Source: Sclerodactyla briareus (taxonomy: Eukaryota; Echinodermata; Holothuroidea; Dendrochirotida; Sclerodactylidae). From it: a DNA stretch of 64,000 nt. Shown here one piece after another: positions 10,684 through 32,559 of this stretch. Within the stretch, counting starts at the first letter, position 1. Each line of letters opens with the position of its first letter. The notes below the pieces were generated by a model, which had not been told where the DNA came from, ran no database searches, and saw only the letters and a list, made by a program, of their open reading frames with translations. The position numbers and the translations under genes were made by a program. The DNA lies in contig JAODTK010005534.1 of assembly GCA_026419785.1 (NCBI GenBank), positions 372,001-436,000 on the forward strand, written 5' to 3'.

Positions 10684-10824
10684 CCGTTTTAAGATTTTTT
10701 TCAGCACCAATTCTTCCCAGTCTCCATATGAACCAGCACACTCTGTGTTTTCCATATTATGATACATGGCGTTGATATAACACAAACGGTAGAATGTTGA
10801 CACTACCACAAAACATGAGCCATG
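10684..10824 (-). CDS. Candidate 47-codon exon
   Basis: On the minus strand an acceptor TTGAACATTTTTCAG is followed by an open frame reading HGSCFVVVSTFYRLCYIN, then MYHNMENTECAGSYGDWEE, then LVLKKILKR. It ends at a weak donor GTGTGA, or runs two codons further to a stop. The amino-acid pattern looks coding and no comparable plus-strand frame exists. It probably belongs with the exons at 9306-9369 and 8870-9148, but the phase to 9306-9369 does not match directly, so either an exon is missing or the assembly has an indel. Confidence 0.4.
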
Positions 10825-10929
10825 CTGAAAAATGTTCAAAAGCCCTATGAAATACTGAGATTCTTGAGAAAGAGAAAAAAAACACAGGGGCAAATGCGAG
10901 AGCTATGAATCGTGAATTCAGTACAAGTT

Positions 10930-11440
10930 GGTGCCACCAATGGCTGGCGGCTGGTTCATTCAGTGGAGTGGGCCCATGCCAGGCATCCTAGGGCGAGGCT
11001 GGCCAATGGTAGATTGGCCGACATCTTGTAGGAGGCGGCAGCACTGGTCTGCGGGGTGTACGCGTAGGAGCGGCATAGCGGAGGGGAGGGGGCTGGTCTT
11101 GGAGAGGGGGGTGGGGGAGGGATTTTGCGCCATCGCTTGGTTCTGCGCTGGCTTGTGTAGTCCGTCACCTCAGCTGCCAGCTGCTCTTTTCGTGCCCCAA
11201 GAATCTCAAGATCCGGAGCTTATGCTCCTCCTTCATGGTCCCATACTATCGATGTGGTAGGCGGTGGTGTCCTCCAGTGTCTGCCGGTGGGACGACGTGG
11301 CGGCGCCGAGGGCGGATGTAGTCGGGGGTACGGGGCGGGGGGGGCGTTTCGGGGGTCTGGAAACGAGCAACGAGTCACGGGCGGACAAACAATAGCTCCC
11401 CGGGCACGAGGGAGAAAAAACAACGGAAAATAGGTCCGTT
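10930..11440. promoter_or_regulatory. GC-rich, CpG-containing candidate promoter
   Basis: About 500 bp that is far richer in G, C and CpG than its surroundings. It has CCAAT at 10937 and 11003, an inverted ATTGG at 11013, and CAAGATGTCGGCC (minus strand, 11028-11016), which resembles a YY1 element placed over a start codon. The minus-strand ATG at 11024 opens 22 codons (MSANLPLASLALG...) with A at -3. The coding-like exons at 10824, 9369 and 9148 all lie downstream in that direction, so I infer a minus-strand promoter. A divergent plus-strand start is not excluded. Confidence 0.4.
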
Positions 11441-14400
11441 GTAAATCGAGCCTTCACCCACACAACCCTCCGGCATGTCAGAGGAAATGTAGGAAAAAAA
11501 TATAACCACTGGCTGGATCCGCTACCGACAGCTGAATTTCGTACGGAAAGAATTTTATTTTCGAAAGTTCGATATCGAGATGCAAAACTTTACTAGCATG
11601 CTAGATGCCATACGCTTTTATTAAGGATCACACGGACATGAATGACAAGAACAATAAGTGATAAAAGAAGACGCAGAAGCGGTTTGTTTAGATAGAGGCC
11701 TTAATACGAAATCGGCAATGTTCGGATACGTTCAATTCGTCTGGTATAGTCATATCGAACCAAATCGACAGAAGACTATTTCGGAGGTCTTAGTGTGTTT
11801 TTTTTATGACTGCACAATTCTGCCTGAAGAGAAATTAATGTTACGATTGTGCTTTTTGATTATTGACTGTCAACAGTAAACAACAGGAGAAGATATTGCG
11901 CAACGACCGAGTGGTGTGTCTTTCCCCCACAGGCATACCATGCCGAATGAGTTGAATGAGTCGAGGCATTCAGTGTATACAGTATTATCAATTAAATGAA
12001 CACCATCAAACAAAAGCGACATGAACTATATAGAAAAAAGAAAAAATTGGGAGATGAAGAGATGAATGAGAACACTAATAGTCTGCATTCAAATCAGAAC
12101 TTATCAAATACTTTCTTGCAGAGATCAACATAGATAGGTTATTGCACATTCATCATGATTGTTGAAGGAATTACACCTTTGATTGGCTGAATCAAGTCAG
12201 CTACCAGCATTAGGGCCACAGCGTGATGCACGGGGTCGATTCAAGAAGCAAATACATGCCGAACTCGGCAAGTCTGCTAACCAATGTTGAGCGATTTGAT
12301 TGTTTAATTCGAACGCAAGCACGGGCCTGAGTGACGGGAAATCTGTACGGAATTAGCACAAATTGATGCACCCTTATGTGTATGTGTATGAATACCTCGC
12401 AATCGGTGCAGTGTGCCGTGTAGCGTGCATAGACTATCTGGGTCCCAGAGTGCAACACTCAGGGAGCACGTTCTTTAAATTACTTACATCTAATAGTAGG
12501 CAGTTATTATTTTAGTACGCGCAGGAGGTGCGATGATAAAAGACCTACATGAAGTCGGAATCGATGAGAAATCGAGGTCGCAATCTTTTTGTTCGTATAT
12601 CTGGAATAGTTATGATCATTCCTTGAGTTCCGCGATATATCTTAGGGAATTCTTTATCATGGAGAACTACATACTATGAAATTGCGAATTAAAGGATCTC
12701 GGGGAAACTGACCTAAAGGGGAGGGAGAGGTGGAGAGTGTGAGGAACAGCTTTCCAACAACGGTGTAAGAATTCAGAATTCAAGAAGAGCACATGGATTT
12801 GCCGGTTCCAAGGACAAGATTTCCTAGCCTTAAAATAAAGCAGGAGGATCGGAGAAGATGGCAATGGAGTTAACGGTCGTTCGTGAAGTAGGAGGTATCT
12901 AGAACCTAGATGCAGCCTAAAATTCTATTGAATACTGATTGGATCGGCGTAACCCTATGCTTAGATATGAGCCTGAATTCTATTTTAGCAACCTATGAAA
13001 TGAGTGTTTGGGATGTACCCAATAAAGACATGAGAAAAATTCAAATGCTTATAAGTGTAAAAACATGCAACACCTGGATGAAAAAAACAAGACTAGATCA
13101 GGAATTATCAAAAAAGACAAGATCAGAATTATCAGTGTTGATTAACTGAGTTGATGAATTCTTAACGCGAATCGATGCTTCACAGAGATGATTTCTGGGA
13201 CTCGGTGACAGTCAACTCACTGTTTCAATTGGGGGAAATTTCCACAAAGTTATAGAGTCATGTTCGTGAAAAGGAATGAGGATGTTTCAATACTGGGCAT
13301 AGAGGCAAAATGTTCTACTAAATATGTACAGTGAATTGATCCGGATGACAGTTAGCCAACGATATCTCCCCCAACTCAATATGATAATTCAGCATAATTA
13401 TGCAAACGCCTAGTCTATCAACTATGTAGCATACTTCATGCTCAGACTGTGAGTTCATATTGAAAAAATTGTGAATCTCTACTTAATGGCATCCAGAGTT
13501 CAATGTAAACTAAACCTGGGGGTCCATGGAACCTGACCGCTAGGGGGTCCTTGAAATCATGTGAGAGCCTTGGGAAACTGCAGGGGGTCTATTAAAAAGC
13601 GTCCACAAAACAGAAAAGATTTTAAAGATGTAAATGGGTATGTCCTGAAAATGCACTATTCAGCATCAGGGTACCCTCAACTATTTTTTGCAGAAATCAA
13701 GAGGAGAAGTGACATTGCTGCTTGCTCTCACAGGCAGCAATCACAGTTAGGAGGTCCTCTAAGGCCAATGGTCATGTAAAACCAGATTAGCCCACACCCC
13801 AAATTGGGAGGTTTCTAGCATGTTCACTTGTTGAGATATTTAATTTATTTGAGGAATTCAAGGAAACTATGACATATTAGGGGAACGATGCAAAAGGCTG
13901 TCCATAGAACTTACACAGTAAATGTTGCATTCTGTGCCAGGATTAGTGGAAAAAAGAGAGGGTATTCACCTACTGTAAAATCGGTGCAGGTAATTATCTA
14001 GGTATCGTGAACAAATTGATGGGTTTCATGTGGATCCCATCTCCAGTTGTTCGAGCAAGATTTTCGGAAGCACAGATTTCTACCATTGAAATGGTATTAC
14101 ATGATGTCTACAAGAAGAGAATTGACCCCATACCACACTCAATCATCCGACTGCGAGTACTTTACCGTGCATGATATCGGCAGCCTCTTGGGTGGTTAGC
14201 AATGTGTGAGAAAGGGGTGTATCTAGATGGGAGCCCAGGCTCTGTTTGGAGACCGGCTCTTGGTGCCAGTGAGCAGGTGCTTGGCACCCATCAGCAGTGG
14301 AAATGTCTAATAAATAACAGCAAAATCAGACATAAATTCTTAAATCCTCTCAAACTGGAGCCGGTCATAGTTTCATATTAATACCATTGGTTGAGGAGGG

Positions 14401-15239
14401 GGAATTTCACATGCCGACTGCAGCATGCCGACTGCCTACCACTTGTTTCCATGTTCTGGTCCCCATGCAATGCCGAGTGCCCAAATAGAAGGTGTAATAC
14501 TGTCACAGTACGACACGACAGGATTTGAACCCAAGCTGATGAATGCCAGCAATCCTGTATATGGAAAACTCATCAATGAGTAAAGTATCCAACATCAGAT
14601 CCGATTCTTCGTGGACTGGGTTCGACCACTGACGTATGAAAAAAGAGGTTATACCCGTCAATATTTGAAAAATATGTCTATCTCATTCCTCTAATAAACA
14701 GCTTTCCTTATGGCCTTCCCTCCCCCCGTAATCCTGATTCGGATGATATATCCAGGCACACTTGTTCCAGGAGATCATTGAGGAACAACGTGACTTCAAT
14801 TGGCTTGTTCACAATTGCAAGCGTGCCCCCCCCCCCTCAACTTCTCAACACACAGAGCTGAGGGGGGAGGAAACAAAGATTTTGTCCATGGCGCTGGCAT
14901 ACAGCCCATATGAATCTGTCACTAACCTTCTGTAAAGTAAACCAGTATTTACCCCTGTTTACAAAAAAAACTTTTTTAGGGTATTGTTGATATGAGTATG
15001 AAGGAATGTTCTTGATGAAGTGGAGGGAGGGGGGGGGGGGTGCGACAAAGTTTTGTGCTGCTATGAGCATATTTTCCGTCAGGGAAACGAGTTAGGAGGA
15101 TGCTCGACACACTGTTTGTGCCAAAACAACAGAATGCCAATGTTCCTCCAAGACTTAATTTGACACAATACCATTATCATCTTGGCCAAACAGGCTCATT
15201 ATATCCCCACAAAAACTTTGAAGGGGTCGGGGATATTAT
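11441..15239. other. Long stretch without a supported gene
   Basis: AT-rich with scattered chance frames below 83 codons. A near-duplicate of AGATCAGGAATTATCA occurs at 13094 and 13117. Short C and G runs flank 14826-15045. A tRNA-like or SINE-like word set near 12260-12330 is too degraded to call. No exon with both splice signals convinced me. Confidence 0.35.
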
Positions 15240-15760
15240 GGTTTGGGGGTGCTAGCTGCCGTCTCCGCCCGGGCCACCGCCGCCGGGAAACTTGAGGAGT
15301 TAGGCAATAACTATCTAACGCTTCATCCGAATCATCTGAAACTTGATACAAATGTCAGCCCAGCAAAATCTAGCGAGAGAAGTTCGAAGGGCGTCGTTGC
15401 ATGTCGCTGGCCCTCTAGTGTGACAGGTTTTAAAGAATGATCCGAGTGGTCCGCCATTACATGAAACTGGTGGGTGGGCCCAAAAAGATGTCCTGAAAAA
15501 CGGCGGTTGATATCCCGATACCCGAGGTTATTGTGGGTGTCTTGCGAAAATACAGAGTTAGCCGATTACATGAAACTTGGTGAGTGGGGACAGAAAGTGG
15601 TCACGGAAAAAATGACGGTAATTCCAAGGCACCAGAGGTCAAATTTGCATTTATTCAAGATTTTTAAACTTTGTCGGATAGAATGAATTTTGGAGAATGG
15701 AACTACAGTTGGTCCCAAACAACAAAGGGAGGGCATTTCAAAGTACAGGAGGTCAAATGG
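15240..15760 (+). repeat. ~110-bp tandem units of the AACTTGGTGGGTGGG family
   Basis: The anchor TGAAACTTGGTGRGTGGG recurs at about 15464 and 15569, with a weaker third copy near 15680, giving a spacing of about 105-115 bp. Each unit also has an AGGTCA-like word. The same anchor and spacing recur at 22230-22640, and in reverse sense at 32560-32890, so this is one dispersed family. Confidence 0.6.
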
Positions 15761-16340
15761 AAATAAATTTATGTGCTTTCGCCTGAACGAAGTCCACAAA
15801 AGCTGTTTCTGCCGGGATAGACATGTTGGCGGTTACCAGCCTGCACATGTCTAGTTTCAAACTGTAACCTGCTGTTGAGCAACCCTGGTTGGAATTAAAG
15901 CTATAAAAGTTACAACACCATGAGATTTTTGGCACCTCTGTAGGGACAAATAACCAAAGAGCCATCAGCAGAGATCCTGGCATTTTCATCCTTGGTACTT
16001 TTGGTCTGTTGCTAACCTTTACCTCACAGACATTCATCGGAATGAAACCAGCCTGCTGGAACTAGCATGAACTTAACACATTAGCCATCATCATACCCAT
16101 ACGGATCAGGAAGAACCAAGGAGTATCCGGTGTACTGGCTGGAAGAGAGGCAAATACATTCTAACATTATTCAACATTCGTAAAATCTCGAGAAATCGAA
16201 GCATCAATGAATCGAAAATGAAGGCCATCTTTCGATACCTCCTCTACAAGAAACAGGAAAAGGTTAGTGATTCCTGGACTCTTCCTGACAAACCTATAGC
16301 CAGAGACAAGGACAAATGGGAGATTGTACCAGTGTATGAC
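15761..16340. other. Spacer with a very weak minus-strand exon candidate
   Basis: The minus-strand segment 16052-16023 is a 10-codon open stretch between TTCCAGCAG and GTAAAG. Its phase 0 would suit continuation of the RRM gene, but at 30 bp it cannot be distinguished from chance. Nothing else was recognised. Confidence 0.2.
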
Positions 16341-16344
16341 TCTG

Positions 16345-17760
16345 TATGACCTCTGACCTGACCCCAAAACAATAGGTGTTCACAAGGTTTTCAGAAATTT
16401 AACCTCTGGTGACTCAGATGACCTCTGACCCGACAGCAAAACAAAGGGTCATGTACTCATCATGGGGAACACACAACAAATTGAACTTAATCAATCCAGG
16501 TGGGGTCGAGTTATCGGCGTTCACAAGCAAAATAACCAAATAGGACTTATGTTCCAAATTTTCTATTTTGACCAAATTTCACCCCGACCATACCAAAAAC
16601 GAAGAGGGTTCCTGTACTCCCCGTAAGGAAGCTCACCACACCAAATTTGAACCCGATCATACCAAATATTCTGGACTTATAGTGTTCCACAAGGTTTTCG
16701 ACTTTGACATCTAATGAGCTCAGATGACCGTTGACCTACCCTACAACAATAGGGTCTGGAATCATCATGGGAACAACCCTACCAAGTATGAGCTTCATCC
16801 ATCCAGGTGGGGTCGAGTTATCAGTTCACAAGCCCAACATAGGCCAAATTATTGACTTTTCACAAATTCTCTATTTTTGACCAAAATTTAACTCCGACCT
16901 ATCACTCAAAACAATAGGGTTCTGTACTCCTATAGGAAGGACACACCAATTTGACCCGATAAGACCAACCCATTCTGGACTTATGTGTTTACAAGGGCTT
17001 CAGAATTTGACACTAAGTGAGCTTCAGATGACCTCTGACCTGACCCCAAAACAATAGGGGTCAGTACTCATCATGGGGAACACCCATTACCAAGTATGAG
17101 CTTCATCATCCAAGTGAGGTTGGAGATATCGTGTTCAAAGCCAAAATTGGCCAAAATATGATTTCACAAAATGTTCTATTTCGGACCAAAAATTCACACC
17201 GACTATACCAAAAACAATAGGGTTCCTGTACTCCCCATAAGGGAGCATACCAAATTTGAACAGATTCACAGACAACCATTCTGGACAAATTATCGTGTTC
17301 ACAAGTTTCCAGACTTTGACATCCGATGACTCTGACAGACCACCAAACAATAGGGTTAGGTACTCATCATGGGGAAACCACATATCAGTAGGAAGCTTCA
17401 TCCATCCAGGTTGGGATGAGTTATCGTGTTCACAAGCCAAAATTGGCCCAAATATTGACTGTTCACAAATTTTTCTATTTTGGAACAAAATTCACCCCGA
17501 CTATACCAAAAACCAATAGGGTCCTGTACTCCCATAAGAAAAAAAAAAAAACGGCTACACACCAATTTTAACCCGAGCAGACCAAACAGGCTGGACTTAT
17601 CGTGTGCACAAGGTTTTCAGACTTGGACCTCTGGTGACATCAGTCTGACCTCGACCTGACCCCAAAACAATAGGGGTCAGGTATCATCATGGGGAACACA
17701 CATACTAACTTATGAGCTTCATCCATAAGTGGGATCGAATTTAACCGTGTTCACAAGACA
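16345..17760 (+). repeat. Five-copy tandem array, ~307-bp unit
   Basis: The anchor CATCATGG recurs at 16458, 16763, 17069, 17365 and 17685, giving periods of 305, 306, 296 and 320 bp. Each unit carries the ordered words CCCCAAAACAATAGGG, GAGCTTCATCCATCCA, GAGTTATCGTGTTCACAAG, TTCTATTTTGACC and GACCTCTGACC. Units are diverged from one another, mostly by indels. An A run (17539-17552) is inserted in the fifth. Short frames inside the array are not genes. Confidence 0.85.
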
Positions 17761-17829
17761 GGTGTAACACAAATACATTCAACATACACACACACACATA
17801 CATGTAAGGGACGGTCAAACGCGGAACAT

Positions 17830-18200
17830 GCAGTGAACTCCCCACCCGAGGATTCATCGTCAAATCAGGCCATCATAAGTGTACGGCCGAGGACAAGAGC
17901 CTGGTCTAAAGAAGTGTAGTGTAGGATTTTTAGTACACAACCGAGGTCTATATGTATTACACACCTGCTAACCGAGGACGCACAATAATACCATGCAACA
18001 GTGGACCAAAAAACTGGCTTGACCTACCCCACCCCACCGAGGACTGATTGCAGATTGACATAAAACTGCACTAACAGCATGTTTAGCATGCGCTTGTGTC
18101 TGATACACCCCTATTTCAAGCGTGGACAGTCCTCATTCCCAGGTGCGTCCTCAGTTGGCGGGGGGGTATTCATACGAACGTCCTCAATTTTCACACCTAT
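17830..18200. repeat. Cluster of CCGAGGAC motifs, direct then inverted
   Basis: CCGAGG(A/T) occurs at about 17852, 17884, 17941, 17973 and 18036, with spacings of roughly 32, 57, 32 and 63 bp. The reverse complement GTCCTCA then occurs near 18128, 18148 and 18179. Multiple short direct and inverted copies in under 400 bp are unlike the flanks and resemble a subterminal binding-site cluster of a DNA transposon. That function is an inference. Confidence 0.45.
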
Positions 18201-18700
18201 TACAAACGTAAGCACACCACATACACAAACACTGGAGACAATTATTCCCCAATTGTGTAATGATAGATATATTCGGGTGATCAGTGTTCGTTTCGCATTT
18301 AATTAATGAAGCGAGGCCACAAACAATCATGACACAAGTTTTGCCAGAATTTTACTGCCATCCCTTTTTGGGCCGAAATTCATCAATCTAGCCACCCCCC
18401 AAAATAAAGTATTACAAGCGCTATTTACGCAGGAAAATCCAATTAGTCATCTTCCTCATAACCTGCTCCTATGTGTCAACCAATCACCAAAACACCTACA
18501 GTTTGTCTGTAATTTGTTAACAAGCTCAAACAATAAACTAAATTAAATAGGTCAATTCCCCAATAGTGAATTTGGTGCCAAAATCTTATCAGATCGTGTT
18601 CATACTACACACAAAAATTCCATCAGCAATACAGTCTTACCGTTTCAGTGAAACTGCTCATCACATGTGACACACACTAACATGTGTATACATGACATAC
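18201..18700. other. 3' flank or intron of the RRM gene
   Basis: No further exon is certain. A minus-strand donor GTAAGA near 18640 is preceded by a few open codons, but the intron to the exon at 18701 would be too short. The 3' end of the gene is therefore not located. Confidence 0.3.
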
Positions 18701-18827
18701 ACCACGTACGCCGAAGTGGTTGCAAGCTAATTCTTTGGACGCTTGCATCAAACTGATGGGGCGCTCGTTTGGATGGTAACATATAACTGGCCCCCACCTT
18801 TCACGTATTATCCGCCATGTGCCTTCT
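18701..18827 (-). CDS. RRM gene: last exon identified
   Basis: The acceptor GACGTTTGCAG is followed by one base that completes the Arg codon of the previous exon, then 42 codons including GTWRIIRERWGPVICYHP and SLMQASKELACNHFGVRG, ending at donor GTATGT in phase 0. A weaker donor GTACGT lies nine bases earlier. The phase match with the preceding exon supports it. The domain is not recognised. Confidence 0.6.
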
Positions 18828-21800
18828 CTGCAAACGTCAAACAACCTTGCATTGGGACCCAATATTAGTAAGCGGTGATGTGCTATCTCCCGAGCAACTT
18901 ACAAAGAATATGCGATATGGTAATAAAAACATATTGAGGCAGGTGTCATACACATCGCTAAAGTTTATTTAATTTAGTTTAATTAATTTATTCATGTGCT
19001 ACAAAACATACCAAGTGAAGGTGAGCCAAGCTGACTAAGCAATGTAGGCAAGCAACCAACATGAGCTAAACAAGGATTACTATAAAAGTAGTGATGCTCG
19101 TTTTCCCGAACTGTGACTAACCTTGGATCGTATCTGAGCGGTGACCTCTCGCGGCCTTTAAAGAAGGGAGCTTGATTGTCTGTAATAAAGCAGGCTCGTG
19201 TGGAGAGGTTATTCACTTCCTACACTACATGTATATGAACAAAATATATAGGTAACTTCATCATCATCCAAGCGAGATTCTGACTGATAGTCCATGAACG
19301 AATTATCTGGAAAAATACAACACTAGTGTTTCACTAGTGTTTTTTAGCCTCCCAGGGTGCCTCTACAGAGGACAATATCTTACCGGAATATTTGCACCTA
19401 ACAACCAATTGATCCTTCTCCCAGTTATCTTCTGCAGAAAAACGGCAGAGTGGCAAACATTCTGGTATGCAAAACCAAGCAGTCACCCATGACGTGTCTC
19501 CCTGGAAGGCTGTCTGCAGTGGATTTCTGGACCTACCAGGGTGGTTACGGGATACTTGCAAATGGAAATCGCGTTGGTGGCTGTGAGCGGTCAGGTTGAA
19601 CTTGAACCTCCGCTCCTCCAGGTTATGAGAAATGGTAGGATCCAGGATTCTACAGATCGTCCTTTCGAAGGAGGTGCAAATGGCGGTTCGGGAGAAGGTG
19701 GGGATTGGGACCCCTTATTCGCTCCCAACCGCTGTTTTTATGTGAGCTTATCACTATAGTGACAGATGCCCTAACAATGGAAAGAGGTGATTTTATTAAA
19801 ATCTATGAGATCAAAAAGCCAATCAAGGAACCCTGGCAGTATTGATCGTGGCTGCAGCCTTCCATAAATTACCCCCCCCCCCCCCCCATTCTCTTCCGAC
19901 TAGGGCAAACGATGATATCGAAGCAGGGTTTAAACAATCTCAATCTGCTCCTGCAGATTGGCATTCCATGTCCACATCCGAAGCATATGGTGAACTTTTG
20001 CCGAGAAGCGTGTGGCAATTGTTAAGGAGTCGAGTCGTAAACAGTGTTGTGGGTTGAGTCCATGTTGTACCCTTGAGCAGGTGCTTTATCTTGAGTGCTT
20101 CACTCCACCCAGGTGTAAATGGGTACCTTGTGAGGTAAATTAATATAGCGTTGGCTGTATGGTGGCTGCACCTATGGGAAGTCCCCACGGGGACACGATG
20201 ATGTGGCATTACTGTTCAGTGTGCCCGGGTGAACCAGCAAGGGTGTGCACTACTCGTGGGGGTGTGAAAAGTTACCAGTGAGCAGGGGTAATGATTGTGA
20301 AGCGCTTTGAGATGTGGTTTGCCACCTATAAGGCGCTATAAAAAATCGAGTCATCATCATGATCATGTCTCAGAGGCCGGAGGAACACAGGATTCATGTC
20401 CCATTATTGCTCACAGCTGATTTGCAATTCGAGATCTCACCATCACAAATGCAAGTCCCGGTCACCGGCAGAAAAATGCATGGTGTGGCTGCATCAAACC
20501 GGGTTGCCTTTTTTCTCGCTCACTGGCTTATCGACATCACAAAACAAACCGTAGAAAACCAGTAGAAGGTCCACTGCATTACATCAGATAATGGAGTGAG
20601 GACCAAGACCTGGCCTGTTGCCAACGGCAAGTTACAGCCACCCAGGAAAAAAAAACTGCACGTGAAAAGCTGGACCCAAACTTGATGTTACTTGCCAAAA
20701 GCGCCACTGGTAACACTCAGCCAATTTTCCACACAGTAGGGAGGTTACAAGAATGGTCATGAACGATGTGGACTAGGACATTCATGCTAGCGAAGAAAAA
20801 TATTGCACGCTCCTGATCGGGGGTGTCACCTACTGATGCCGGAGGGTGAAGCCCCGAGGGAGAGGGGTGAGGGGGGGGGGGGGGGCAATAAGGACCCAAA
20901 GATCTCATGAGAGCCTCAGCATCATTTCGCACACACCAAAGTGCTCACTACAGCTTTGACTCCCAATTGCTTATGAGCCCCCAACTTTCAACATGTGCGT
21001 TACCCCGTGCTGGGGCCTGTGCAAGTGCCCAGAGTGTACAGCATGTGACGTCATGCTGATCCGAGCAAGGCGCACACAGAAACCGCACCTCAATAAATCT
21101 GGTACAGGGTTTGTAAGGAAGAGTGCTGTCAAGGGGGATAGAAAGCGCTGACTGATTTACCCGCTGGTGGTTTGCCACATCATATGCTCAGGGGGGCCCC
21201 CCCGTCATACTCTTGGGCGCTTGTTCTGCCGAGGCAAATCTGCGGAATACAACAAAATATCAATTTCTCCAAATGGAAAAGACAAAGCCTAAAGCCTACC
21301 TCACACCATAGGTGTAGTTCACACCACACGCTACGGCGCAGCTCGCGTTGACCGCATGATACGCCGTGAGTCGTGCGGACTCCTGCGAAGTTCACTGCGT
21401 TCAAGTTGCCCAGCCCAGTGATCATATTCGTTTTGGAGTACACTGGAGAATTCACAGAGAAGACACACAGAGATATTGTTTATTTCAAGGGGTATGTTCG
21501 TATGTCCTCCGATAATTTTTGAAGAAGTAGGACCACTGATAGCAAAAGATACTTTCAGTCAAGCTATTCTGCGCTTCCATTCTGCCCATGCTTTTGATTT
21601 ACCTGCCATCACAAAACTACGTGGGCCTTGCAGAACTTTGAACTTCTTCAAAATTCGCCGCAACAATTGCGGCCAGTCTGGCCGCTCGCAGTGGCGTACG
21701 GTGTTGCCGTCATCGCCTCACACCTTACGGTAAACAGCGACGCGAGTATACTGTAGGCTGCGCACAGCCTTGCGGTCAGCAAATTCCATACAGTGTAAGG

Positions 21801-24064
21801 CAGGCGTAAGTAACACTCAGTGCCCAGAAGGGCCTGAATGCGATAACACAGCTATTTGATAAACACCTAAAAACGTACCTTGGTCAATTTTGTAATCACC
21901 AGAGCCTGCTACTTTAGAAACTGACTTGGAAGTATTCTGACCTACATCATTTGCCAAGCTCCATGGGAGCTTCAAAATCTCAGATATTGTGTTCAAAGTA
22001 ATAGCTAGCCAATTAACAGAATACTAATTGCATCTGGGAAAGGGTACAAATGGACAATATAGCTTGTTTGGATTTCTGACACAAACTACAACTACAAATG
22101 GATCACTGTATGCCTTGGATCCTAATCCGCCACTGCCGTCTCCGCTGCCACTGAAAATTATGCTTGGCTCAAGGAGTCTTCAATGCTCCATCCGATTGAC
22201 CTGAAACGTACAGAAGTCCGCCTTGGAAAATCTCGGATGGGTTCGGGAGTGGGCAACGCCGCTAACTGGGGCCGCTAATTTGCATTATTTAGGCGAAATT
22301 CAAGTTAGTTGGATTTGAACAAAACTTGGTGGGTAGGGATTACAGTTGATCCCGACCGTGGAGTCATTTCAAGTCATCCAAGGTCATATTTACATGATTT
22401 GTGGCGATTTTCCAGACTATGTCAGACAAAACTTTGGTGGATGGGGGCTACATTTGTAGACAAAGTCAAAGGTCATTTCAAGGCCATCGTGGGTCGAATT
22501 TGCATAATTTATGTGACTTCATTGTAACTTCCATGGATTACAACAAAACTTGGTGGATGGAGGCTATCTTAGTTTCTGACCAAAATGGAGGTCTTTATGG
22601 GGTGTTAGATACTTCTCTTCCAAATGACTGCTCAAAAGCGGGCATTACTGTACACATGGGCGGTTTTTACCCAGCTTACACTTATAGTTTTCTTGCTTGA
22701 CATTACTTACCTATTTTATTCCCTTCTATTAACGTGCCACTTTCACCTTTGATCGCTGCGGCAGCTGCAGTATCCAACTCAAACTGGATGAAGGCGAATG
22801 TCTTGCTGATGAAAACATCTGTTTGAAATAAAGAAAAATTTGCAGAACAATAAGTGAAGGATCCACACGATCAAATAGTGTGTACCCAAATCTCCCAAAC
22901 ATGCTACTTGTCCTCCCCCCACGACTGCTGTCAAAATCACAAGCAGCTTTGTCACTGTCATAAAAAAGCTATTTCCGATTTGTTTTCATTAACCCCTCTT
23001 TTCTGAATGTTTACAGACCAGGATCACCCAGTGGTAATTTTGATTGGGTTTCTATGGGTTCATGAAGCAAATTAAGGGGTTCATGATGAGCACTGGCATT
23101 AACTCGCCTTTCCTCCTACACTAGAGCTCAGATGATGTTAGTGATGGATAAGAATTGTGAATTTACAACTGCACTGTCAATGCCACCAAGTGTGTACTAA
23201 CCCTCTACCCCTTCAATAGACATGCATGAATGTTAATTATTCCTACTTTCATCCTCTGCTCAAGATTTTAGTCATGCTACACGTGAAGATTCAGCACATA
23301 AAGTTGAGTTGCATCTGTGTAGAATAGATTTGTCTCCTCTCCATTGAGAATGCTTTTACGCAAGAATCAGAATTGCTCCACGGATTTATTCGAGGCAATG
23401 ACTGGTAGTCCTCTATTTGAAGCTCTTTGCTCTTCAGGGCCGTACGTATAACTTTTGTGACACATTTTAAATCATAGTATATATCTTATATCTGGAGCCA
23501 GAAATTATCTACAAACCAAGGACCAAACAAACAAAACATTCTTATATGTCATGTAAACATGAAAATTATCACTTCTACCTCTCATTAACTAGGGATTTTT
23601 TTTAATTCTTAACCAAATTTTACTTGCCCAACACTTGCCCTACAGCAAGTGAACTTTTGTTCAGGGCAACTACTTTTAGTCCATCAATTGCCCTTAATTA
23701 ACACTGGTTGCAATTTACCCAAATGTAAGGGTCCAAATGTAAGGGTCTGTTCATACAAATTCTTACATTCGGGCAAGTGAAAAATGAAGTTAACATCAGG
23801 CCCTGCTCTAATTCGGTACTTGCATCAATGCTTGACAATTCTCATGGTCCATACCTGGAAAGAATGAGGAGAAGAGAACCAAGGGATTAATAATCCCAAA
23901 CATCAAACTGTCATACTCCACTAACGACATACTCACCTAAGACCTTGCCGTACTTCTCAAATCGTTGCTATCATCTGAGCGTTGTCAATTTTATCGGAGG
24001 GCACGTTGGCAACAAACACCCTTGCGCTCATGTTCAATACGCTTTTCTGGCCGTTGTCGGTCAT
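18701..24064 (-). CDS. RRM-domain RNA-binding protein, six exons, 3' end open
   Basis: Probable nuclear RNA-binding protein. Coding exons in transcript order are 24064-23937, 22818-22711, 21941-21879, 19431-19384, 19179-19122 and 18827-18701, about 176 residues so far. The RRM spans roughly residues 14-80: RNP2 is VFVANV (exon 1), helix 1 ends at FEKYGKVL, and RNP1 is KTFAFIQF (exon 2). A Lys-rich linker follows, then a basic stretch with PFFKGRERSPLRYDPR, then a segment with ERWGPVICYHPNERP. Exon-end phases are 1,1,1,1,2,0 and every junction matches the next exon, which is hard to obtain by chance. One extra base near 23960 breaks helix 1 and is most simply an assembly error. The single N-terminal RRM recalls hnRNP C/RALY or NCOA5-type proteins, but I cannot fix the subfamily. 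Confidence 0.8.
19122..19179 (-). CDS. RRM gene: 58-bp basic exon
   Basis: The acceptor CCTGCTTTATTACAG and donor GTTAGT enclose a phase 1 to phase 2 exon reading NQAPFFKGRERSPLRYDP. Basic residues beside an RRM commonly add RNA affinity or nuclear import, but that role is an inference. Confidence 0.65.
19384..19431 (-). CDS. RRM gene: 48-bp exon
   Basis: The acceptor CTGCCGTTTTTCTGCAG and donor GTAAGA enclose exactly 16 codon-equivalents reading EDNWEKDQLVVRCKYS when entered in phase 1. It ends in phase 1, matching both neighbours. Confidence 0.65.
20008..20366 (+). repeat. tRNA-derived SINE, near full length
   Basis: The head has an A-box-like TGGCAATTGTTAAGGAGTCG and a B-box-like GGGTTGAGTCC. 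The body has CTTGAGCAGGTGCTTTATCT and CACCCAGGTGTAAATGGGTA, words typical of a widespread aquatic-animal SINE class. The 3' end is GAAGCGCTTTGAGATG, then AAGGCGCTATAAAAAATCG and an ATC-rich tail. It lies in an intron of the RRM gene, antisense to it. RNA polymerase III transcription would start within the head. Confidence 0.8.
21293..21806 (+). mobile_element. MITE with PIF/Harbinger-type ends
   Basis: A 514-bp element flanked by TAA at 21290-21292 and at 21807-21809. The left end AGCCTACCTCACACCATAGG and the reverse complement of the right end, CGCCTGCCTTACACTGTATG, form imperfect terminal inverted repeats. A TAA/TTA target duplication is characteristic of PIF/Harbinger. The interior is GC-rich with CpG words and no transposase frame. 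It sits in an intron of the RRM gene. Confidence 0.5.
21879..21941 (-). CDS. RRM gene: third coding exon, acceptor uncertain
   Basis: The donor GTACGT (21878-21873) is clear. Two acceptors in the same frame are possible, giving either 63 bp (start 21941, after GATGTAG) or 33 bp (start 21911, after TTTCTAAAG). Both enter in phase 1 and end in phase 1 with GSGDYKIDQ. The longer form adds QNTSKSVSKV. Confidence 0.5.
22230..22640 (+). repeat. ~110-bp tandem units, intronic
   Basis: The anchor ACAAAACTTGGTGGRTGG recurs at about 22319, 22425 and 22542 (spacings 106 and 117). Each unit contains AGTCATTTCAAG/AGGTCATTTCAAG words followed by TTTGCATAATTT-type AT-rich sequence. Same family as 15240-15760. 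Confidence 0.7.
22711..22818 (-). CDS. RRM gene: exon with RNP1
   Basis: A clean 108-bp exon. The acceptor is TTTATTTCAAACAG and the donor GTAAGT. With the G carried over from the previous exon it reads DVFISKTFAFIQFELDT, then an alanine run, then IKGESGTLIEGNKI. KTFAFIQF fits the RNP1 pattern of strand 3 of the RRM and the rest is helix 2. Phase 1 to phase 1. Confidence 0.8.
22962..23936. other. First coding intron of the RRM gene
   Basis: AT-rich intron sequence. Besides the old repeat fragment at 23060-23150, it holds a short direct repeat of CCAAATGTAAGGGTC at 23718-23745. No exon is seen inside. Confidence 0.5.
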
Positions 24065-24089
24065 GGTGGAATGCTTCTCCTAACAGGCC
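23937..24089 (-). CDS. RRM gene: 5' UTR and first coding exon
   Basis: The acceptor TTTCTCAG on the minus strand precedes 25 UTR bases, and the ATG at 24064-24062 follows CCACC, a good Kozak context. An in-frame TAG 18 bases upstream of the ATG fixes the start. An untranslated exon must lie upstream, not found. The exon encodes the N-terminus, RNP2 and helix 1 and ends at donor GTGAGT (23936-23931) in phase 1. The frame needs removal of one base near 23960. Confidence 0.75.
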
Positions 24090-24906
24090 CTGAGAAATGG
24101 AGCTGAGAGCCTGAGAGTGACTCCTGGGTGTACACCACTAGTCCCTGGGGCTTGAGTTCCCTCCGGAAACGGTTGTCTTGCTGTCCAACAGGAGGATCGG
24201 TTTGTCCAGAAGCTGAATCTGACAAAGGAGGAATAAAGAAGAGTGGTCTATGCAAGCTTGGTAGAGGTCACAACAGACTGATCCATACATGTACGTGAAT
24301 TGCTGATGACATGAACATCGTTTGTCTAGTCGACATATCATTCGGGACTCTGATGTCCTTGAAATTTGATTTTACAGTCTTGGTTGAAATCCACTCATTT
24401 CTTTTTCTCTTCTCGAAGTGGCTGATAACTATCAAGGATATTATCAGGAAAGCCATTGGGACTATCTAGTCGCTGCCGAAAATCCACGCCCATTTGAGCT
24501 TATTCGGGTTTCCCTCAATGAGTTTCAAAAAAGTTTACAAACTCTCACATGTTGACCTCAGCATTTCAGCTTCAATGGAAACAATACCCAGACAAGGCGA
24601 TCGCCAAAATGTGGTCTCGCTTGATTGCGCGATGTCAGTGGTTTTGTATCTTCCTCCCACAAACAACAAACTAGTACATCATATGATGGAATTTAAATCA
24701 AATTCATGAACATCAAACACATCAGATCCAGAAAATGTCAACAGACCATACCTACTGAGTTTGGCAAAATTTCTTTACTAAGTTGGAAATTGTAATAAAT
24801 TATAAATTGGCACACATAATGACCTCTAATGACCCCAGCTGTACGTTAAAAATGATCAGGATCAAAGGTGGATCACATCTACCAAGTTTTGTGGAAATCC
24901 AACAAA
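24090..24906. other. Upstream region of the RRM gene, no exon located
   Basis: The 5' untranslated exon and promoter should lie here or further right. No CpG-rich island is apparent. A stretch at 24820-24905 (ACCAAGTTTTGTGGAAATCC) belongs to the reverse sense of the ~110-bp repeat family. Confidence 0.3.
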
Positions 24907-24907
24907 C

Positions 24908-25222
24908 CAGTGCTCGAAAAATATTTTGAAATTTAGTAGCCCTTCGGGCTCCCAAGTGGCTGCCTGGGTAGCCCGAAAGGCCCGACTGGGTGTCCATAAG
25001 TTACCGGTGTTTAAAATGTTACTTTTATGCAACAAAAAAACCTGAACTGAACTTTTGATCATTCCTTTGAGCCCCACTCTCATATTGCCCCTTGCGATTT
25101 ACTGGGCCCTGCTCTGCTGGTGCCAATTCCCCCAATTCTACCTGTATCTCCTCAGAGCTCTCCCCATCATCTCCACCACATTTCCTGCCTCGCGAGAAAA
25201 ACTTTGGCAAACTCATTTTCAA
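24908..25222 (-). mobile_element. Fragment of a possible hAT-type element
   Basis: CAGTGCTCGAAAAATA at 24908 looks like a hAT terminal end. Next to it, 24938-24985 forms a GC hairpin around CCCTTCGGGC and GCCCGAAAGGC. The minus-strand frame 25222-25025 (65 codons) starts MSLPKFFSRGRKCGG after a two-residue leader, followed by acidic residues. This resembles the SLFSFF-type N-terminus of many TTF/ZMYM-like hAT transposases. The opposite end and target duplication were not found, so it is at best an internally deleted copy. Confidence 0.35.
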
Positions 25223-25449
25223 AAATATTGGCGTAAATACCGTTTGATATAACCCTGTGCTGATTCTCCAATAAGGCTAAATACACACACCCAATTACAC
25301 AATGGAAGCCCCGCTGTTGAGTTATTGAATGTAGGGGGGAGGAATACCTACATGTGTTAGAAACATTCTGCAGTGATATGGTATTTATATTCATTCCATA
25401 ACTAATTCCACTCTAACTCAACTTTTCCTAACAAAAGAGGGAAATCTTT

Positions 25450-25550
25450 GAAAAAAGTGATTTAAATCAGTGATTTAAAAAAAAAATCATTGATTTAAAT
25501 GCGATATTTAAATCAGTGATTTAATCAACGTGATTGAAATCAACCGACCC
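25450..25550. repeat. Cluster of TGATTTAAATCA palindromes
   Basis: The 12-bp palindrome TGATTTAAATCA and close variants recur in direct and inverted form, ending with GAAATCAACCGACCCTGG. Similar AAATCA-rich ends belong to short DNA-transposon derivatives in many animals. The family is not assigned. Confidence 0.5.
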
Positions 25551-25933
25551 TGGGTGCTAAAATCCCTGGAGACGCCATGTCCCATGGGTCAATAAACATT
25601 GTGTCCAGTTTGGTCAACATCCACAAAGAATGACGGTTGGGGGCCAAAAGGCATTGTTTGACACACTGGAAGATGGATATATAGATAGACATGCAGATTC
25701 TAATAGCTCAACCAGCATAGCTGGTTTGAGCTAAAAATGTCAATGTCAGAGACATACAGTCATTTGTTCCGTATCATATGCAGTAGCATGCAGTTTATTC
25801 AAACACCACACTCGAGAGAACCCAGCGCGTTGCATCAGAGCTGTTTCTTTTGACATAGGGCCATCAATTTGTAAGTCGAGTCGGTCACGCTGACGTACGG
25901 AACAACCCAATGACCGAGCCTCTCTAATATCAA

Positions 25934-26221
25934 CTAAATATCAACTGTTTTTATCAATTTATCTACTGAAGAATGTTGTGGACAATTGACCTCAATAACA
26001 TTTTTCAATGAAATATTTTCTTGGCAGTAGTCTTCTTCTTTAATTCCTCCAAACGATGAGGACAGTAACATTTGTCTGCCTCCTTTACCTTCAAAGTCTC
26101 CTCCCAGCAGAATGTGTCGAATGAGCTTAGGTCTGACAATGGCTTTGAGCTCTCTCGAGCTGCCGTCTCGTGGGGTGTGCAGTGGTCTGATAATTGGTTC
26201 TGATAATTGGTTGCATACCAA
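25934..26221 (-). CDS. Candidate coding exon, 95 codons
   Basis: One of the best uninterrupted frames in the window. Minus-strand landmarks are PRDGSSRELKAIVRPKLIRH, LLGGDFEGKGGRQMLLSSS and KEEDYCQENISLKN, ending in a stop at 25934. A donor-like GTAAAG lies inside the frame. A 13-bp word (CCAATTATCAGAA) is tandemly duplicated just after the start. There is no recognisable domain. It could be part of a transposon, because the hAT-like fragment lies just downstream on the same strand. Confidence 0.4.
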   Translation of the reverse strand: MVCNQLSEPIIRPLHTPRDGSSRELKAIVRPKLIRHILLGGDFEGKGGRQMLLSSSFGGIKEEDYCQENISLKNVIEVNCPQHSSVDKLIKTVDI

Positions 26222-26454
26222 CTGACTTTGTTATGCCACTAACACATTAAAAGTTTGTCAAATTGTCGCAAATCGGCCGACTGTTCATGTCACTTCATGT
26301 GCAAGATTGCAACTCTCGAAAAACAGTAAGAGCAGCATCGCTGTCGAACTTTCCCAAAAACATGTCTTCTAGGCAACACCGAATTTCGCTCAGAACTTTT
26401 AGTATGATTGTCATACTGTATACCATTGTCAGGATTGTACCTGGATTAGCCGGA

Positions 26455-26520
26455 GACTAGGGTTAGGGATCCGATTAGAGATGAGGTCAGGGTTAGTGAG
26501 AGTTAGGTTTAGGTTTTGGT
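26455..26520 (+). repeat. Degenerate interstitial telomere-like repeat
   Basis: TAGGGTTAGGG, AGGGTTAGTGAGAGTTAGG and TTTAGG words follow each other. They resemble the animal telomere repeat TTAGGG but are short and imperfect. Confidence 0.4.
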
Positions 26521-28169
26521 CACGATAAGACTAACACAGGTTAATACATTATTTAATTCTGTGCACCCCGTGGGAATGTTCTCTTCTGCTGCTGATAGTC
26601 GCTGAGGCGACACGGACTTACAGGTGAAATTATTCAGTTATTCTAGCAATATTTGTTCGCAAAAGGTAGGTAGGGGGCCTAAGTCAGTTGCTGGAACATG
26701 AGAAACTGATGATTACTTTCTTCTTCCAAATAAATGGAATAATCGCAAAACTAAGTTGTTTTTTTACGCATCTCAATGATTGCGGTTCTGTTGCACGTTT
26801 AAAAGTGAATCAAATGATGCTCTTAGTAGTTTGTTGCGTGTCCATATGCTAGCATACTGTAGAAAAGGACCGCTTACCGCACTCATGAACTGCCGACTCA
26901 TTATACACACACTATATAAAGTAGTGGGAGCCTAACGTTACCAGCGTCTGTGGCAGTAAGTACGACTACTAGGACCCACTAACTTATGCTGTGTCCATTT
27001 ACCTTGTGCCCCACAGTGTACACGACTTCACAAACACGGCCATTCCGTACCAAGTCATGAAACACAGTGGTGAAGTGGGAATTTTGAATAGCGACTCAAC
27101 TTCATGACCATACCAAATGGCGGACATTCGACCACTAAGTTGAAAATCAAGCAAATAGGAATATCCCATAAACAAATGAATAATGCCAGGTCAATATTCT
27201 TGAAGATGAGAACTTCGGAAAACATCACGCAATTAGTTGCGAATCAATTCTATACATTTGACATTTTGACAAAAGGCTTGTTTCGCCGAATCTCCGGCTA
27301 TCAAGTGGGTTTCGCGCAAACCATCCCAGTGCATTAAACGTCTCGTTAACTTTCGATTTTCAAAAGTGGCCGTAAATGCTCAAGCCCAATAATACCCTTT
27401 GATTCTTGTGTGATTATTGATGCACTATTCCTAGGACTAATGAAAACACTATAGTATTAGCCTATGCCTAGGCCCCAGGCCCCCTCAACGTTTCGATGTA
27501 CACTACTAACTCATACTCTTACATACTAAACGTGGGCCTGTGGCCTATCCTGCTGGGGCGTGGCGGCGGACCGGTGGGGCTGGGGGGGCTCAGCCCCCCC
27601 ATTGAAAAAAATGAGGGGAGGGGTGCAAATGGCTTGTTTAGCCCCCCCAATATTGGCAGAGTGTTTCAGAAAACATTCATGTAGGTATTTAATTGCTCTC
27701 ACCTGATTGTTTAAATTAATAATTTCAAAAATTTCTTATGAATCCTACTTCGTGACTAGTGACAATCCATCATATTAACCACTCTGGAGCTATATATAGC
27801 ATATGAGTCATCTTTCAGTTGCATCTTTGCGGTCCCGTAATGACCGTAATGTGATACGCGTGGCGAAGGCCTGTACTGCGCGTCGCATCGTTTGACATAT
27901 TCACTGTTTCTGCATTCTCACCCAATGCAACCATCACTGTAGCCTATTTACACACTAATACTACTAGTCTAATATGCCCATTATTTACCATGCCCTTGGT
28001 AATCTTGCTCCAGGCAACCCATCAAATCATCGAGGTTGCGATGCTGTCAGGGACGTATAGCCTATTCCTTACTACTAATTATGACCTAAGTCAGATGGCC
28101 ATTAAAATTGATTTACCATTGTTCCTTCGGTGTATATATAGACTAACGCATTATAAACACAGTGGTACA
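26521..28169. other. No gene; one GC-rich transposon end
   Basis: 27540-27665 holds GGGGGGCTCAGCCCCCC-type inverted G and C runs followed by AATGAGGGGAGGGG. This is the look of a hAT terminal region and resembles 49440-49538. The remainder is AT-rich with no supported exon. Confidence 0.35.
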
Positions 28170-30052
28170 CAATGGGAGGCTATCACGGAGGGGGGGGGGG
28201 GATACGTGGGGACATGTCCCCCCAATAATTTTGGTTGGGGGGTTATTTTGTTAAAAAAAATGTTTCCCCCCCCCCCCCCAATATTTTGCGGTACTGGGTG
28301 AAAAACCTATAATCATATGTACAGTACTGCCAGAACACAAGGGTCTACTCATTTTCTTAGCAGATCCTTGATGTTATGTTGAGAAAGCGGGAATGCAAAA
28401 AAGTTAGTCGCTGCGCGCCGCCGTATTAACTGTTTTTTTTGTTCGTTACATGTATATACAGTAGGCCATGTATACAATATCTTTGTCAGCTTCTAATTCA
28501 AATATGACCTCTCTCCATACGTGCAATCTCCCAGTGTGGTGACCCTATGGTAGGCCACAAGGAAAATTTTGGTTCGGGACATGTTCATGTTTTCATCCCT
28601 CTCCCGAATACAACGCTGTCTGGAAACTACTTCCATTTTCTTAACCACTGCATTCTGAACACAACCCATAGCTAGAGTTTAGTCTACTTCTGACCGTTAA
28701 TGTCAACTGCATTCATGGCTCGTGCTGTTCGTAATAGAAGATGAAAGCTATAGGCCTATGTGCAACGAAAAACACAGGGCAGGTACATGACGTGCCATCA
28801 CTAGGAGGTTTACGTGAATTGTACTTATGCAACTATAAGGCGCGATGCGGGGCGAAACGATTCTGAAGACACGACAATTTTGGACAAAAATTTGAACGGG
28901 AAAACATCTGAAAAAAATGTCACCGAATTTCCGCTGACTGCTCAATTCCTTTTAATCAAATTCCCACAAAAAATGCCTAGATTTTCCATGACAGTGATGT
29001 TCCAGAGCAAATCTTTAAGATGCGAGCAACTTAACATCCAATTGGAAGGACCTCGTGGAAGATTGTCTAAACAAGGGCTATTATAGAATTGAGGCCACGA
29101 TGAAGAAATGTAAGATTAACATCGTCGATTTTCGGAAATTCATTGCCAATTTCAGTGATGCTGCTTACTGCAATAGAGCCCCGGGAAGTGTCGCTCTCTG
29201 CAACTGAGTTCGGGGAAGGGGGGTTGTAACTGTGGTGGCGGGAATTTTAATGAATAAGCATAGATCAGTTCCTTCAAGAGCGTTTCCTTAGAGATATAAT
29301 TTCGGGAGAATTTATTGTCAATTTAGGTGATGTTTGCTAACTGGTCATAACACCGGGTAAGTCCCGTTCCGGCAATCTGGCGGGGGGGGGGGGGGGGGGG
29401 GGGGGGTGGGGGGGGGGGTCGTAAGGCTCAATTCCCTTGTACCCTACGCGTCCCACTGATGGTGGCGCGAATGAGGGAATGCACATAGATCAGTTCCTTC
29501 AAGAGCCGTCTTGAGATATAAGTCCGGAAATTTTATTGTCACTTACAGGGGTGTTGGCTTACTGACTTTACGCACTAAGACCCTCGGGAAGTTCCGTTTC
29601 CGGCAATCTGGGGTTTCGAATGCTCAAAACTTTCTTGTACTCTACGCGTCCACTAATGGTGACCCAAATTGTAAGAATACATCGATCAGTTCCTTCAGAA
29701 CATTTCTTGAAATATAATGCTTTGGCTATTCCTTGCCAATTTTGTGACTTGCTAATTGCCATACGCCCATGAGTACCGTTTCCTGCAATCTGGGGGTATT
29801 AAAACGAGATTTTTTCATCGAACAGGTCCTTCAAAAGATTTCTTGATCTATTCATTTCTGAAAATTATTTCTTTGAAAAAAAAATCGAGAATTTATTGCC
29901 ATTTTAGGATTGTTTACTTACTGCATATGGCCCGGAGGTGCCGTTTCCTTCCTGCATCTGGGGCCTGTAAAAACGAAAAATTTGCTTGACGCTCCGCCCC
30001 AACCAATTTTGGCTCTCACGCTTAGATAGTGCCAGCCTCCTATGTAACCCCC

Positions 30053-30092
<40 letters not shown>

Positions 30093-30130
30093 AATATTTG
30101 ACACTCCGATCGCCGCCCCTGTGGTGTAGT
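28170..30130 (+). mobile_element. Dispersed element with five internal ~185-bp units
   Basis: 28370-30130 matches the reverse complement of 47610-49290 through many ordered words: GCGCGCC near the A/T run, CTCTCCATACG, GTAGGCCACAAGGA, CATTTTCCATGACAGTGATGTT, CCAATTGGAAGG and the unit array, ending near GATCGCCGCCC. Its left part (28170-28290) has long G and C runs. Because the matching copy lies inside the hAT-like insertion at 45912-49538, this is probably a truncated relative of that element in the opposite orientation. Confidence 0.7.
29100..30000 (+). repeat. Five-unit array, ~170-230-bp spacing
   Basis: The anchor (C)GGCAATCTGG or close variants occurs near 29200, 29372, 29602, 29784 and 29953. 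Each unit also has ATCAGTTCCTTCAAGA and AATTTATTGCCA-type words. The longest spacing is caused by a G run of 25 plus 11 bases at 29382-29418. An A run of 37 bases follows the array (30054-30090). Confidence 0.8.
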
Positions 30131-32189
30131 ATTATTTCCTTTATTTTTTCGCTGTAATATGCCTTGTCACGACGTGATTAACGAAGGCTGAAACTATTTC
30201 GAATTAATTCAAGCCAAACATGTTCCTACCAGCATGTGCTACATGCTTCATTCTTCAGATGTTAAGAATATGTAAAATTAAGTAACTATTATGATAAGTA
30301 GCCATTTTGAAAAGGTTATTACAGTAAGTAGTAGGCTATATTTCCCAAGAGAGCATACCAAATTTAAGAATAAAATTTCGGTGGGATCACCCTCACCCAC
30401 GACAGTCTAAGGATTCACTTGGTCGGTCCATCTTCAAATTTTGCAATTTCAAATGTTTGTTTAACATTGCTTTAATATAGCACATGGGCTAGCTATACTT
30501 TTACGGAAACGACCGAGCGCATCTCCAACCTGTCACCTAGCATACTTAGAAAGGGTGGTTTTAATGTAAATAGGCTGGCTCAAATGATACCTTGTACGGA
30601 GGACATTTTCATTCAATTGTTATTAACACTTATATTCAAATTGCATTTTTTCTCTGATTTGTTCTTGATATTCATGCATTCAACATGAGACCTGTATTTT
30701 ATGCCTAGTATTTGTAGCCAACCACTGCGGCAAATGCCGTTTTGTCCGGCCATCTAGAGGTCCTGGAAACCCCCGCAAAATTTCTTGCAAACGCTTCGCG
30801 CCAACCAATGGGTGGCGCTACTCTTGTATAGTAAACATCACATAGGCCCCCCAATACAATACCATTCCGCCTCGCCTGTGGCGGGGGCCTAGGCCTGGGC
30901 CTAGATCTTCTTTATTTCCATAGGGAATTCCATAGGGTGTTTTAATTTTGGTGCTCATGTACTGTTAGGGTGCCGCCACATCTGTATTCCCATTTTCATT
31001 CACGACTCGTTTCCCTGGAAGCAATTCACGAGTGGAAGTCGGTATCACGATATCCACGAGGTAATGGAATGGCAGCATCAGTATAAGGAAGGGTCCAAAT
31101 TTCGTTAGTGGACTCGAATTTCGTTACCAGTATTTTTCTGTAACTGGATCCTAGATTGCGCGTGTTTTATAACTAACGCGCACTGATGAGCTAACAATAC
31201 AATACGCAATGGAATCTTCTGAACAACGCGGACTGCACGCTCCATTCACTGTGACGGGCAAGAAGAATCGCGTGAAATTTTGACTAACCCATTTGTTACA
31301 GTTACTTTCCATGCCTATTTATTGCTGTTCTATATTATTGTAGACAACTTGGTGTTTCCATGTGAGAAGCCGAAGTCTTGACTCTTAATAGAGCCCAGGA
31401 TATATAATTCAGATTAGGTTTTATAAGTAGATTCTGGTGTTGCTCTTGTATGTTTTTATTGTTGTGGTTGACGGGGAGCGTTCGGACCCTAATGAGTTTT
31501 ATGCGATCTCGGACATGCCCGCCAACTTTCCAGCGGAGGACAAACCTAGGCCTATGTAACTTGTGTTCCGCCGGTAATACAGACTGAAAGATAAAAGATG
31601 CAAAATAACCAGGACACAATTGTGAGTTTCTTTTTATGTATTCAATACACTACTGGTTCGCAAATGTAATGAAGGTAACGAAATTTGGACCCCCCCCCCC
31701 ATCATACATGCTCTGGACTGAGTAGCCTAGGCCTATCTATAGGCTACATATACACTGTGTACAGTGAACGTAATTTACACACCTGCTGTACAGTGTACTG
31801 CAGCTTGCTTCACATTGAACGTCGGCGGACTTTAAAAAAAAAATGAGTCCACCACCGCAGTTTAACTTCGGATGTTTTGGCTACGTACCACAGGTGTACA
31901 CTCTACTAGCTCTGTTTGGCTTAGTGCGGAAGATTATAATAATATTACAGTATGAAGATAGAAAACTGAATTTCAAGGAATCTCTGTTCTTAAATCCCAG
32001 GCTTCAGAGCCAAGAAGGCATGATCTAGCTGCATGATTTTTATTCCTTACGGTTGGGGTCATGAGTGGGTGCCCATTATTCAAATTCTTGAAACTGCAAA
32101 AACACCTTCTCTCTTTGTTAACCTGATTTCTGCACATTTCCCGTAAATTTGACATCCGTTTCAATCATACACTGAAAATAAATACTGAC
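30131..32189. other. No supported gene
   Basis: AT-rich with scattered AGGCCTAGGCCT words (for example 30880-30905, 31548-31560, 31725-31745). A 94-codon minus-strand frame at 31335-31619 has no splice signals and no recognisable domain. A short minus-strand open stretch after GGTGTTTTTGCAG at 32090 ends at GTAAGG (32052), but its phase does not fit the exon at 32190-32379. Confidence 0.35.
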
Positions 32190-32379
32190 CTATTCCATCT
32201 AGACCATGACTTCCAGACACGTTTTGATGAAACCAAATCGTTTCACAGTATTGCTTAGAATAAAAAGTAACGCGACCCGGACCACGCCGGTCATTCAATC
32301 TCATTACCGAGGGACAAATTCCAAATTCAATTGTTCCAGTCATTTCAGAGTTCAGACTAGTGAATTCCGAACTTGACAT
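32190..32379 (-). CDS. Candidate first coding exon, unknown protein
   Basis: The minus-strand ATG at 32379-32377 follows GCCGGCG and opens 63 codons: MSSSEFTSLNSEMTGTIEFG at the start, then SVMRLNDRRGPGRVTFY and ETIWFHQNVSGSHGLDGI. It ends at a donor-like GTCAGT in phase 1, or a stop soon after if unspliced. It is Ser- and Thr-rich at the N-terminus with no signal peptide. A following exon in phase 1 was not found. Confidence 0.4.
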
Positions 32380-32559
32380 CGCCGGCGGTAAACCGCCAAC
32401 ATATACACCCCATTTTCAACAATGAAAGGCGGGAAGGTTATGAGGATTTATATATCAGAAGAACGGCATACAATGAACGAATAAGCAGGTTTATTTCGGG
32501 CCAATGAGCTACCCCTTTAATTCCTGCATGCACTAAATCAGTAATTTTGTAAAATCGAA

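What the first reader, a model, noticed from the sequence alone, without database searches (positions are those of the whole stretch)
18701..24089. Hidden six-exon RRM gene with every junction in phase
No single long frame reveals it, but minus-strand exons with RNP2 (VFVANV) and RNP1 (KTFAFIQF) split across two exons, plus four downstream exons, join with matching phases 1,1,1,1,2. The C-terminal part (ERWGPVICYHPNERP) matches no family I know, so the protein may be a lineage-specific RRM factor. One base near 23960 must be removed to keep the frame.
Basis: partly seen in the sequence, partly recalled or inferred. Interest (0 to 1): 0.8.

Follow-up and report, generated by a model that had tools for sequence, protein, structure and literature searches.

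The report
Ordinary RNA-binding gene, partly traced
The sequence holds the first two exons of an ordinary eukaryotic gene for an RNA-binding protein resembling hnRNP C; its later exons are only partly supported, and its broken reading frame looks like an error in a rough genome assembly.

Summary
The RRM is real. Minus-strand exons 24064-23937 and 22818-22711 join in phase 1; with XX at the frame break they match Pfam RRM_1 at E=3.5e-8, and the closest solved structures are hnRNP C and RALY. Each exon matches only itself in the genome. 'Every junction in phase' carries no weight: all 112 control regions hold at least 1.8e7 open in-phase chains. Splice-site quality says more: exon 2 joined straight to 19431-19384, 19179-19122 and the acceptor at 18827 is the best chain of its kind here, reached by 4 of 136 and 1 of 112 control regions. 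Exon 3 is not established: the main candidate has a poor acceptor, and those at 21442-21305 lie in an interspersed repeat. 'WGPVICYHPNERP' lies beyond a much stronger donor (18797) and may be intron. Actin and HSP70 exons of this assembly also show frame breaks, so the break near 23960 is most likely an assembly error. The tail has no Pfam or PDB match. An ordinary gene, incompletely modelled; low interest.

The parts
23937..24064 (-). Exon 1: ATG at 24064, RNP2 (VFVANV), first helix; in-frame TGA at 23959-23957 (frame break); donor GTGAGT
   Evidence: its 35-aa peptide matches only itself in the genome
22711..22818 (-). Exon 2: RNP1 (KTFAFIQF) and the rest of the RRM to profile position 69 of 70; donor GTAAGT
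   Evidence: RRM_1 E=2.8e-4 alone, 3.5e-8 joined; matches only itself
21879..21920 (-). Candidate exon 3 (VSKVAGSGDYKIDQ), phase 1 to 1; doubtful, and not needed for the frame, since exon 2 also joins exon 4 in phase
   Evidence: donor 5.3, acceptor -2.5; did not meet my strand-4 pattern; lies outside the repeat
21285..21817 (.). Interspersed repeat inside the intron; speaks against exon candidates at 21442-21305
   Evidence: 41 matches besides itself; three copies re-aligned
19384..19431 (-). Candidate exon 4 (EDNWEKDQLVVRCKYS), phase 1 to 1
   Evidence: acceptor 5.5, donor 5.2; calibration; DNA 18650-19560 matches only itself
19122..19179 (-). Candidate exon 5 (DNQAPFFKGRERSPLRYDPR), phase 1 to 2
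   Evidence: acceptor 4.7, donor 3.9; DNA matches only itself
18701..18827 (-). Candidate exon 6; may end at 18798 (donor AAGGTGGGG, 5.3), which would drop WGPVICYHPNERP and what follows; if unspliced the frame stops at TAG 18679-18677
   Evidence: acceptor 3.3, donor at 18700 only -0.9; donor list and stop

Best explanation
This is the 5' part of an ordinary gene of an intron-bearing eukaryote, probably an animal (inferred). It encodes an N-terminal RRM of the hnRNP C/RALY type, split by an intron between KYGKVL and the RNP1 strand, followed by a charged, probably disordered tail carried at least by exons 4 and 5. The protein most likely binds single-stranded nuclear RNA through the RNP1 and RNP2 aromatic residues. 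Shown: the RRM match, the two exons and their phase, no second copy found. Inferred: RNA binding, nuclear site, U-rich preference (recalled for hnRNP C), exons 4-5 being in the same transcript. The frame break in exon 1 is most likely a base error of the assembly.
For: RRM_1 33.6 bits against a gathering score of 20.7. Top three PDB rows are hnRNP C (2.5e-9, 6.8e-9) and RALY (1.6e-7); the best alignment starts at query residue 4, before the Pfam domain at 16. Donors 6.6 and 6.5. The chain exon 4, exon 5, acceptor 18827 is the best of its kind in its region and is reached by 4 of 136 and 1 of 112 control regions. Frame changes within 4 of 8 exons of one HSP70 copy (my reading) and within exons of the three actin copies looked at (my reading).
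Against: No transcript or orthologue could be tested. No convincing exon 3. No further hnRNP C or RALY piece was found: apart from exon 2 nothing under E=0.05. The genome search is not sensitive: the RRM_1 family search listed 7 matches and the window's exons were not among them, so missed paralogues are possible. The actin and HSP70 copies used as controls may include decayed copies.
Confidence: 0.72

Rival explanations
1. The RRM exons are real but exons 3-6 are chance; the true downstream exons lie elsewhere, for example in the GC-rich stretch 11356-10918 on the same strand.
For: In-phase chains are ubiquitous; the tail has no Pfam or PDB match; a GC-rich, coding-looking, frame-broken stretch lies at 11.4-10.9 kb.
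Against: Exons 4 and 5 have splice-site scores like real ones and their chain is rare in controls. The 11 kb stretch has no credible match either: PRIMA1 0.029 below its cut-off, LRRC26 0.06, none at 0.1 for the frames of 10801-13000.
Confidence: 0.3
2. A decayed copy (pseudogene) of an RRM gene: the in-frame stop and frame change are genuine mutations.
For: In-frame TGA and frame change in exon 1; exon 3 not found.
Against: No intact parent was found (low sensitivity), exon 2 is open, donors are intact, and frame breaks occur in conserved genes of this assembly.
Confidence: 0.15
3. An NCOA5-type coactivator: N-terminal RRM, arginine-rich linker (exon 5) and a downstream anticodon-binding-like domain.
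For: Salmon NCOA5 is said to contain an RRM (PMC3598971, passages). Exon 5 RERSPLRYDPR resembles the human linker RDRSPIRGSPRREPRD (recalled).
Against: Recalled human NCOA5 gave no match under E=0.6 with its domain in C2777:272001-476000 and a salmon-peptide query found nothing genome-wide. Neither has a positive control, since no NCOA5 gene was found anywhere in this genome.
Confidence: 0.1

Closest known systems
hnRNP C1/C2 (HNRNPC)
   Same: RRM aligned over query residues 4-77, E=2.5e-9
   Different: RNP1 has KTF where hnRNP C has KGF; no other hnRNP C piece found in the window or flanks
RALY
   Same: RRM match E=1.6e-7
   Different: No RALY C-terminal region found in the window or nearest flanks
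NCOA5 with N-terminal RRM
   Same: Possible layout: RRM followed by an arginine-rich stretch
   Different: Its anticodon-binding-like domain was not found; inconclusive

Membership tests
RRM_1 domain (PF00076) | Profile score above the gathering cut-off | tested here: met
   33.6 bits vs 20.7 for the joined exons with XX at the break; exon 2 alone 21.1
RRM_1 domain (PF00076) | RNP1 and RNP2 with aromatic residues | tested here: met
   VFVANV and KTFAFIQF read directly; RNP1 glycine replaced by threonine
hnRNP C/RALY | RRM closest to hnRNP C/RALY | tested here: met
   Top three PDB rows; only solved structures were compared, so unsolved families such as RRM-bearing NCOA5 are not ranked
hnRNP C/RALY | Basic leucine-zipper oligomerisation region after the RRM | tested here: inconclusive
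   No convincing tblastn match of recalled human sequence; short, divergent, frames may be broken
NCOA5 | Anticodon-binding-like domain downstream | tested here: inconclusive
   No match in C2777:272001-476000 or genome-wide; no positive control

The most novel reading that the evidence does not exclude
A lineage-specific single-RRM protein whose C-terminal tail (exons 4-6) has no counterpart outside its lineage.
Probability: 0.12. Interest if true: 0.25.

Novelty: new member of a known kind. Interest (0 to 1): 0.12.

Why it matters
It matters little beyond annotation. In a draft genome with many frame errors a gene can escape ORF listing (no ORF with a start codon of 150 aa or more in the window) and still be recovered from two exons of a domain. 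It also shows that agreement of phases between exons picked by eye is not evidence.

Tried and rejected
Pfam on the three minus frames of 18001-25000 gave only a sub-threshold RRM_1 (E=0.095). Minus frames of 1-18001 at E up to 1 gave one chance hit, Terminase_3 at 0.13. Minus frames of 25001-35000 and plus frames of 18001-25000: none at 0.1. The rest of the window was not scanned with Pfam. The exon 3-6 peptide gave only chance hits: RhoG 0.3 in the PDB, Kelch_1 0.14 in Pfam. Of 851 phase-1 acceptors leaving 8 or more residues open, 18 met a loose strand-4 pattern and none convinced me; the candidate at 21920 did not meet it. NCBIfam gave PABP-1234 at 2e-4, far below its cut-off, and weaker rows. 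Paper searches on hnRNP C/RALY in invertebrates or sea urchin showed nothing specific in their listings.

Limits of the controls: the splice-site matrix is recalled, not trained. In the calibration I picked the best site near match ends; 3 of 13 acceptors and 2 of 11 donors scored below 0, so a poor score does not by itself exclude a site. Control regions overlap one another, those include the plus strand of the gene region, and they may hold real genes. One search stopped with a script error after printing the observed chain; searches are the complete runs. For actin I gave the script 7 of 16 loci, for HSP70 all 14.

Full report
What is there. The window lies at C2777:372001-436000 of an unnamed 319 Mb genome in 3171 contigs. 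It has no ORF with a start codon of 150 aa or more and ARAGORN found no tRNA. On the minus strand exon 1 runs from ATG 24064 to 23937 before GTGAGT, and exon 2 from 22818 to 22711 before GTAAGT. Joined in phase 1, with XX at the frame break, they match RRM_1 at E=3.5e-8, 33.6 bits against a gathering score of 20.7; exon 2 alone gives 2.8e-4 and exon 1 alone nothing. The closest solved structures are hnRNP C and RALY. Exon 2 as DNA, exon 1 as peptide and exon 2 as peptide each match only themselves in the genome. That search is not very sensitive: the RRM_1 family search listed 7 matches from 22 candidates and did not list the window's exons.

The frame break. Exon 1 meets an in-frame TGA (23959-23957 by my count) and the RRM goes on in another frame. 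As a control I looked at conserved genes of the same genome. For HSP70, the exons at C2424:93-95 and 120-123 kb, which I take as one copy, change frame within 4 of 8 exons by my reading of the tblastn pieces. For actin (7 of 16 loci given to the script), the C1260 copy shows four frame changes and each of the two C2792 copies at least one. Assembly error is therefore the simplest account. Some of these copies could be decayed themselves, and a pseudogene at our locus is not excluded.

The downstream exons. Exon 4 (19431-19384) scores 5.5/5.2 and exon 5 (19179-19122) 4.7/3.9 for acceptor/donor on a recalled matrix. Best sites near actin and HSP70 match ends have medians 4.3 (13 acceptors) and 4.2 (11 donors), though 3 and 2 of them score below 0; best sites near random positions pass 3.3 and 2.6 only 5% of the time. 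Exon 6 has acceptor 3.3, but its donor at 18700 scores -0.9 against 5.3 for a donor at 18797. Use of that donor would cut away WGPVICYHPNERP and what follows. If nothing is spliced, the frame stops at 18679-18677.

How much is chance. Within 4 kb there are 2.3e8 open in-phase chains of three internal exons here, and at least 1.8e7 in each of 112 control regions. Agreement of phases is therefore empty. By splice-site score, the chain exon 4, exon 5, acceptor 18827 (22.5), joined straight to exon 2 in phase, is the best two-internal-exon chain of its region; 4 of 136 and 1 of 112 control regions have one as good. The best three-internal-exon chain takes 20488-20441 as exon 3 and keeps exons 4, 5 and the acceptor of 6 (29.4; coordinates printed before it failed); 2 of 136 and 1 of 112 reach it.

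Exon 3. There are 171 open phase-1-to-1 exons between 22700 and 19440. The one that might complete the last RRM strand, 21920-21879, has acceptor -2.5 and failed my strand-4 pattern. Candidates at 21442-21305 lie in an interspersed repeat at 21817-21285, with 41 matches besides itself listed, from 231 first-look candidates of which 40 were scored. The DNA at 19560-18650, holding exons 4-6, matched only itself. Exon 3 may not exist, since exon 2 joins exon 4 in phase.

Identity. Among solved structures the RRM is closest to hnRNP C and RALY. Recalled human hnRNP C and RALY against the window and nearest flanks gave, under E=0.05, only exon 2; a fragment of exon 1 appeared at 8.4 among chance and low-complexity hits. 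NCOA5, said to carry an RRM in salmon (PMC3598971, passages), was tested: its domain was not found in C2777:272001-476000 nor genome-wide with one query. No NCOA5 gene was found anywhere, so these negatives are weak. The exon 3-6 peptide has no credible match in Pfam or the PDB.

Verdict. A real but ordinary RRM gene: two exons firm, two likely, two doubtful. A lineage-specific factor has no positive support and was not excluded. The phylum was not established, because the mitochondrial search did not complete.

Noticed in passing
window 16376-17757: Tandem array of about 300-base units, 4.5 copies, 74% matches.
   Followed up: no
window 21285-21817: Interspersed repeat, 41 matches besides itself at 72-87% identity, with CpG near expectation while its surroundings are CpG-poor.
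   Followed up: partly
window 10918-11420, minus strand: GC-rich, coding-looking stretch whose pieces lie in different frames (APDLEILGARKEQLAAEVTDYTSQ; IGGTNLY-stop); no credible Pfam or PDB match. Could be a terminal exon of this or another gene.
   Followed up: partly
window 22566-22681: Short dispersed repeat shared with locus L057 at 83% identity.
   Followed up: no
G000 contigs C2424, C1260, C2792: HSP70 and actin exons show frame changes, suggesting low base accuracy of the assembly.
   Followed up: partly
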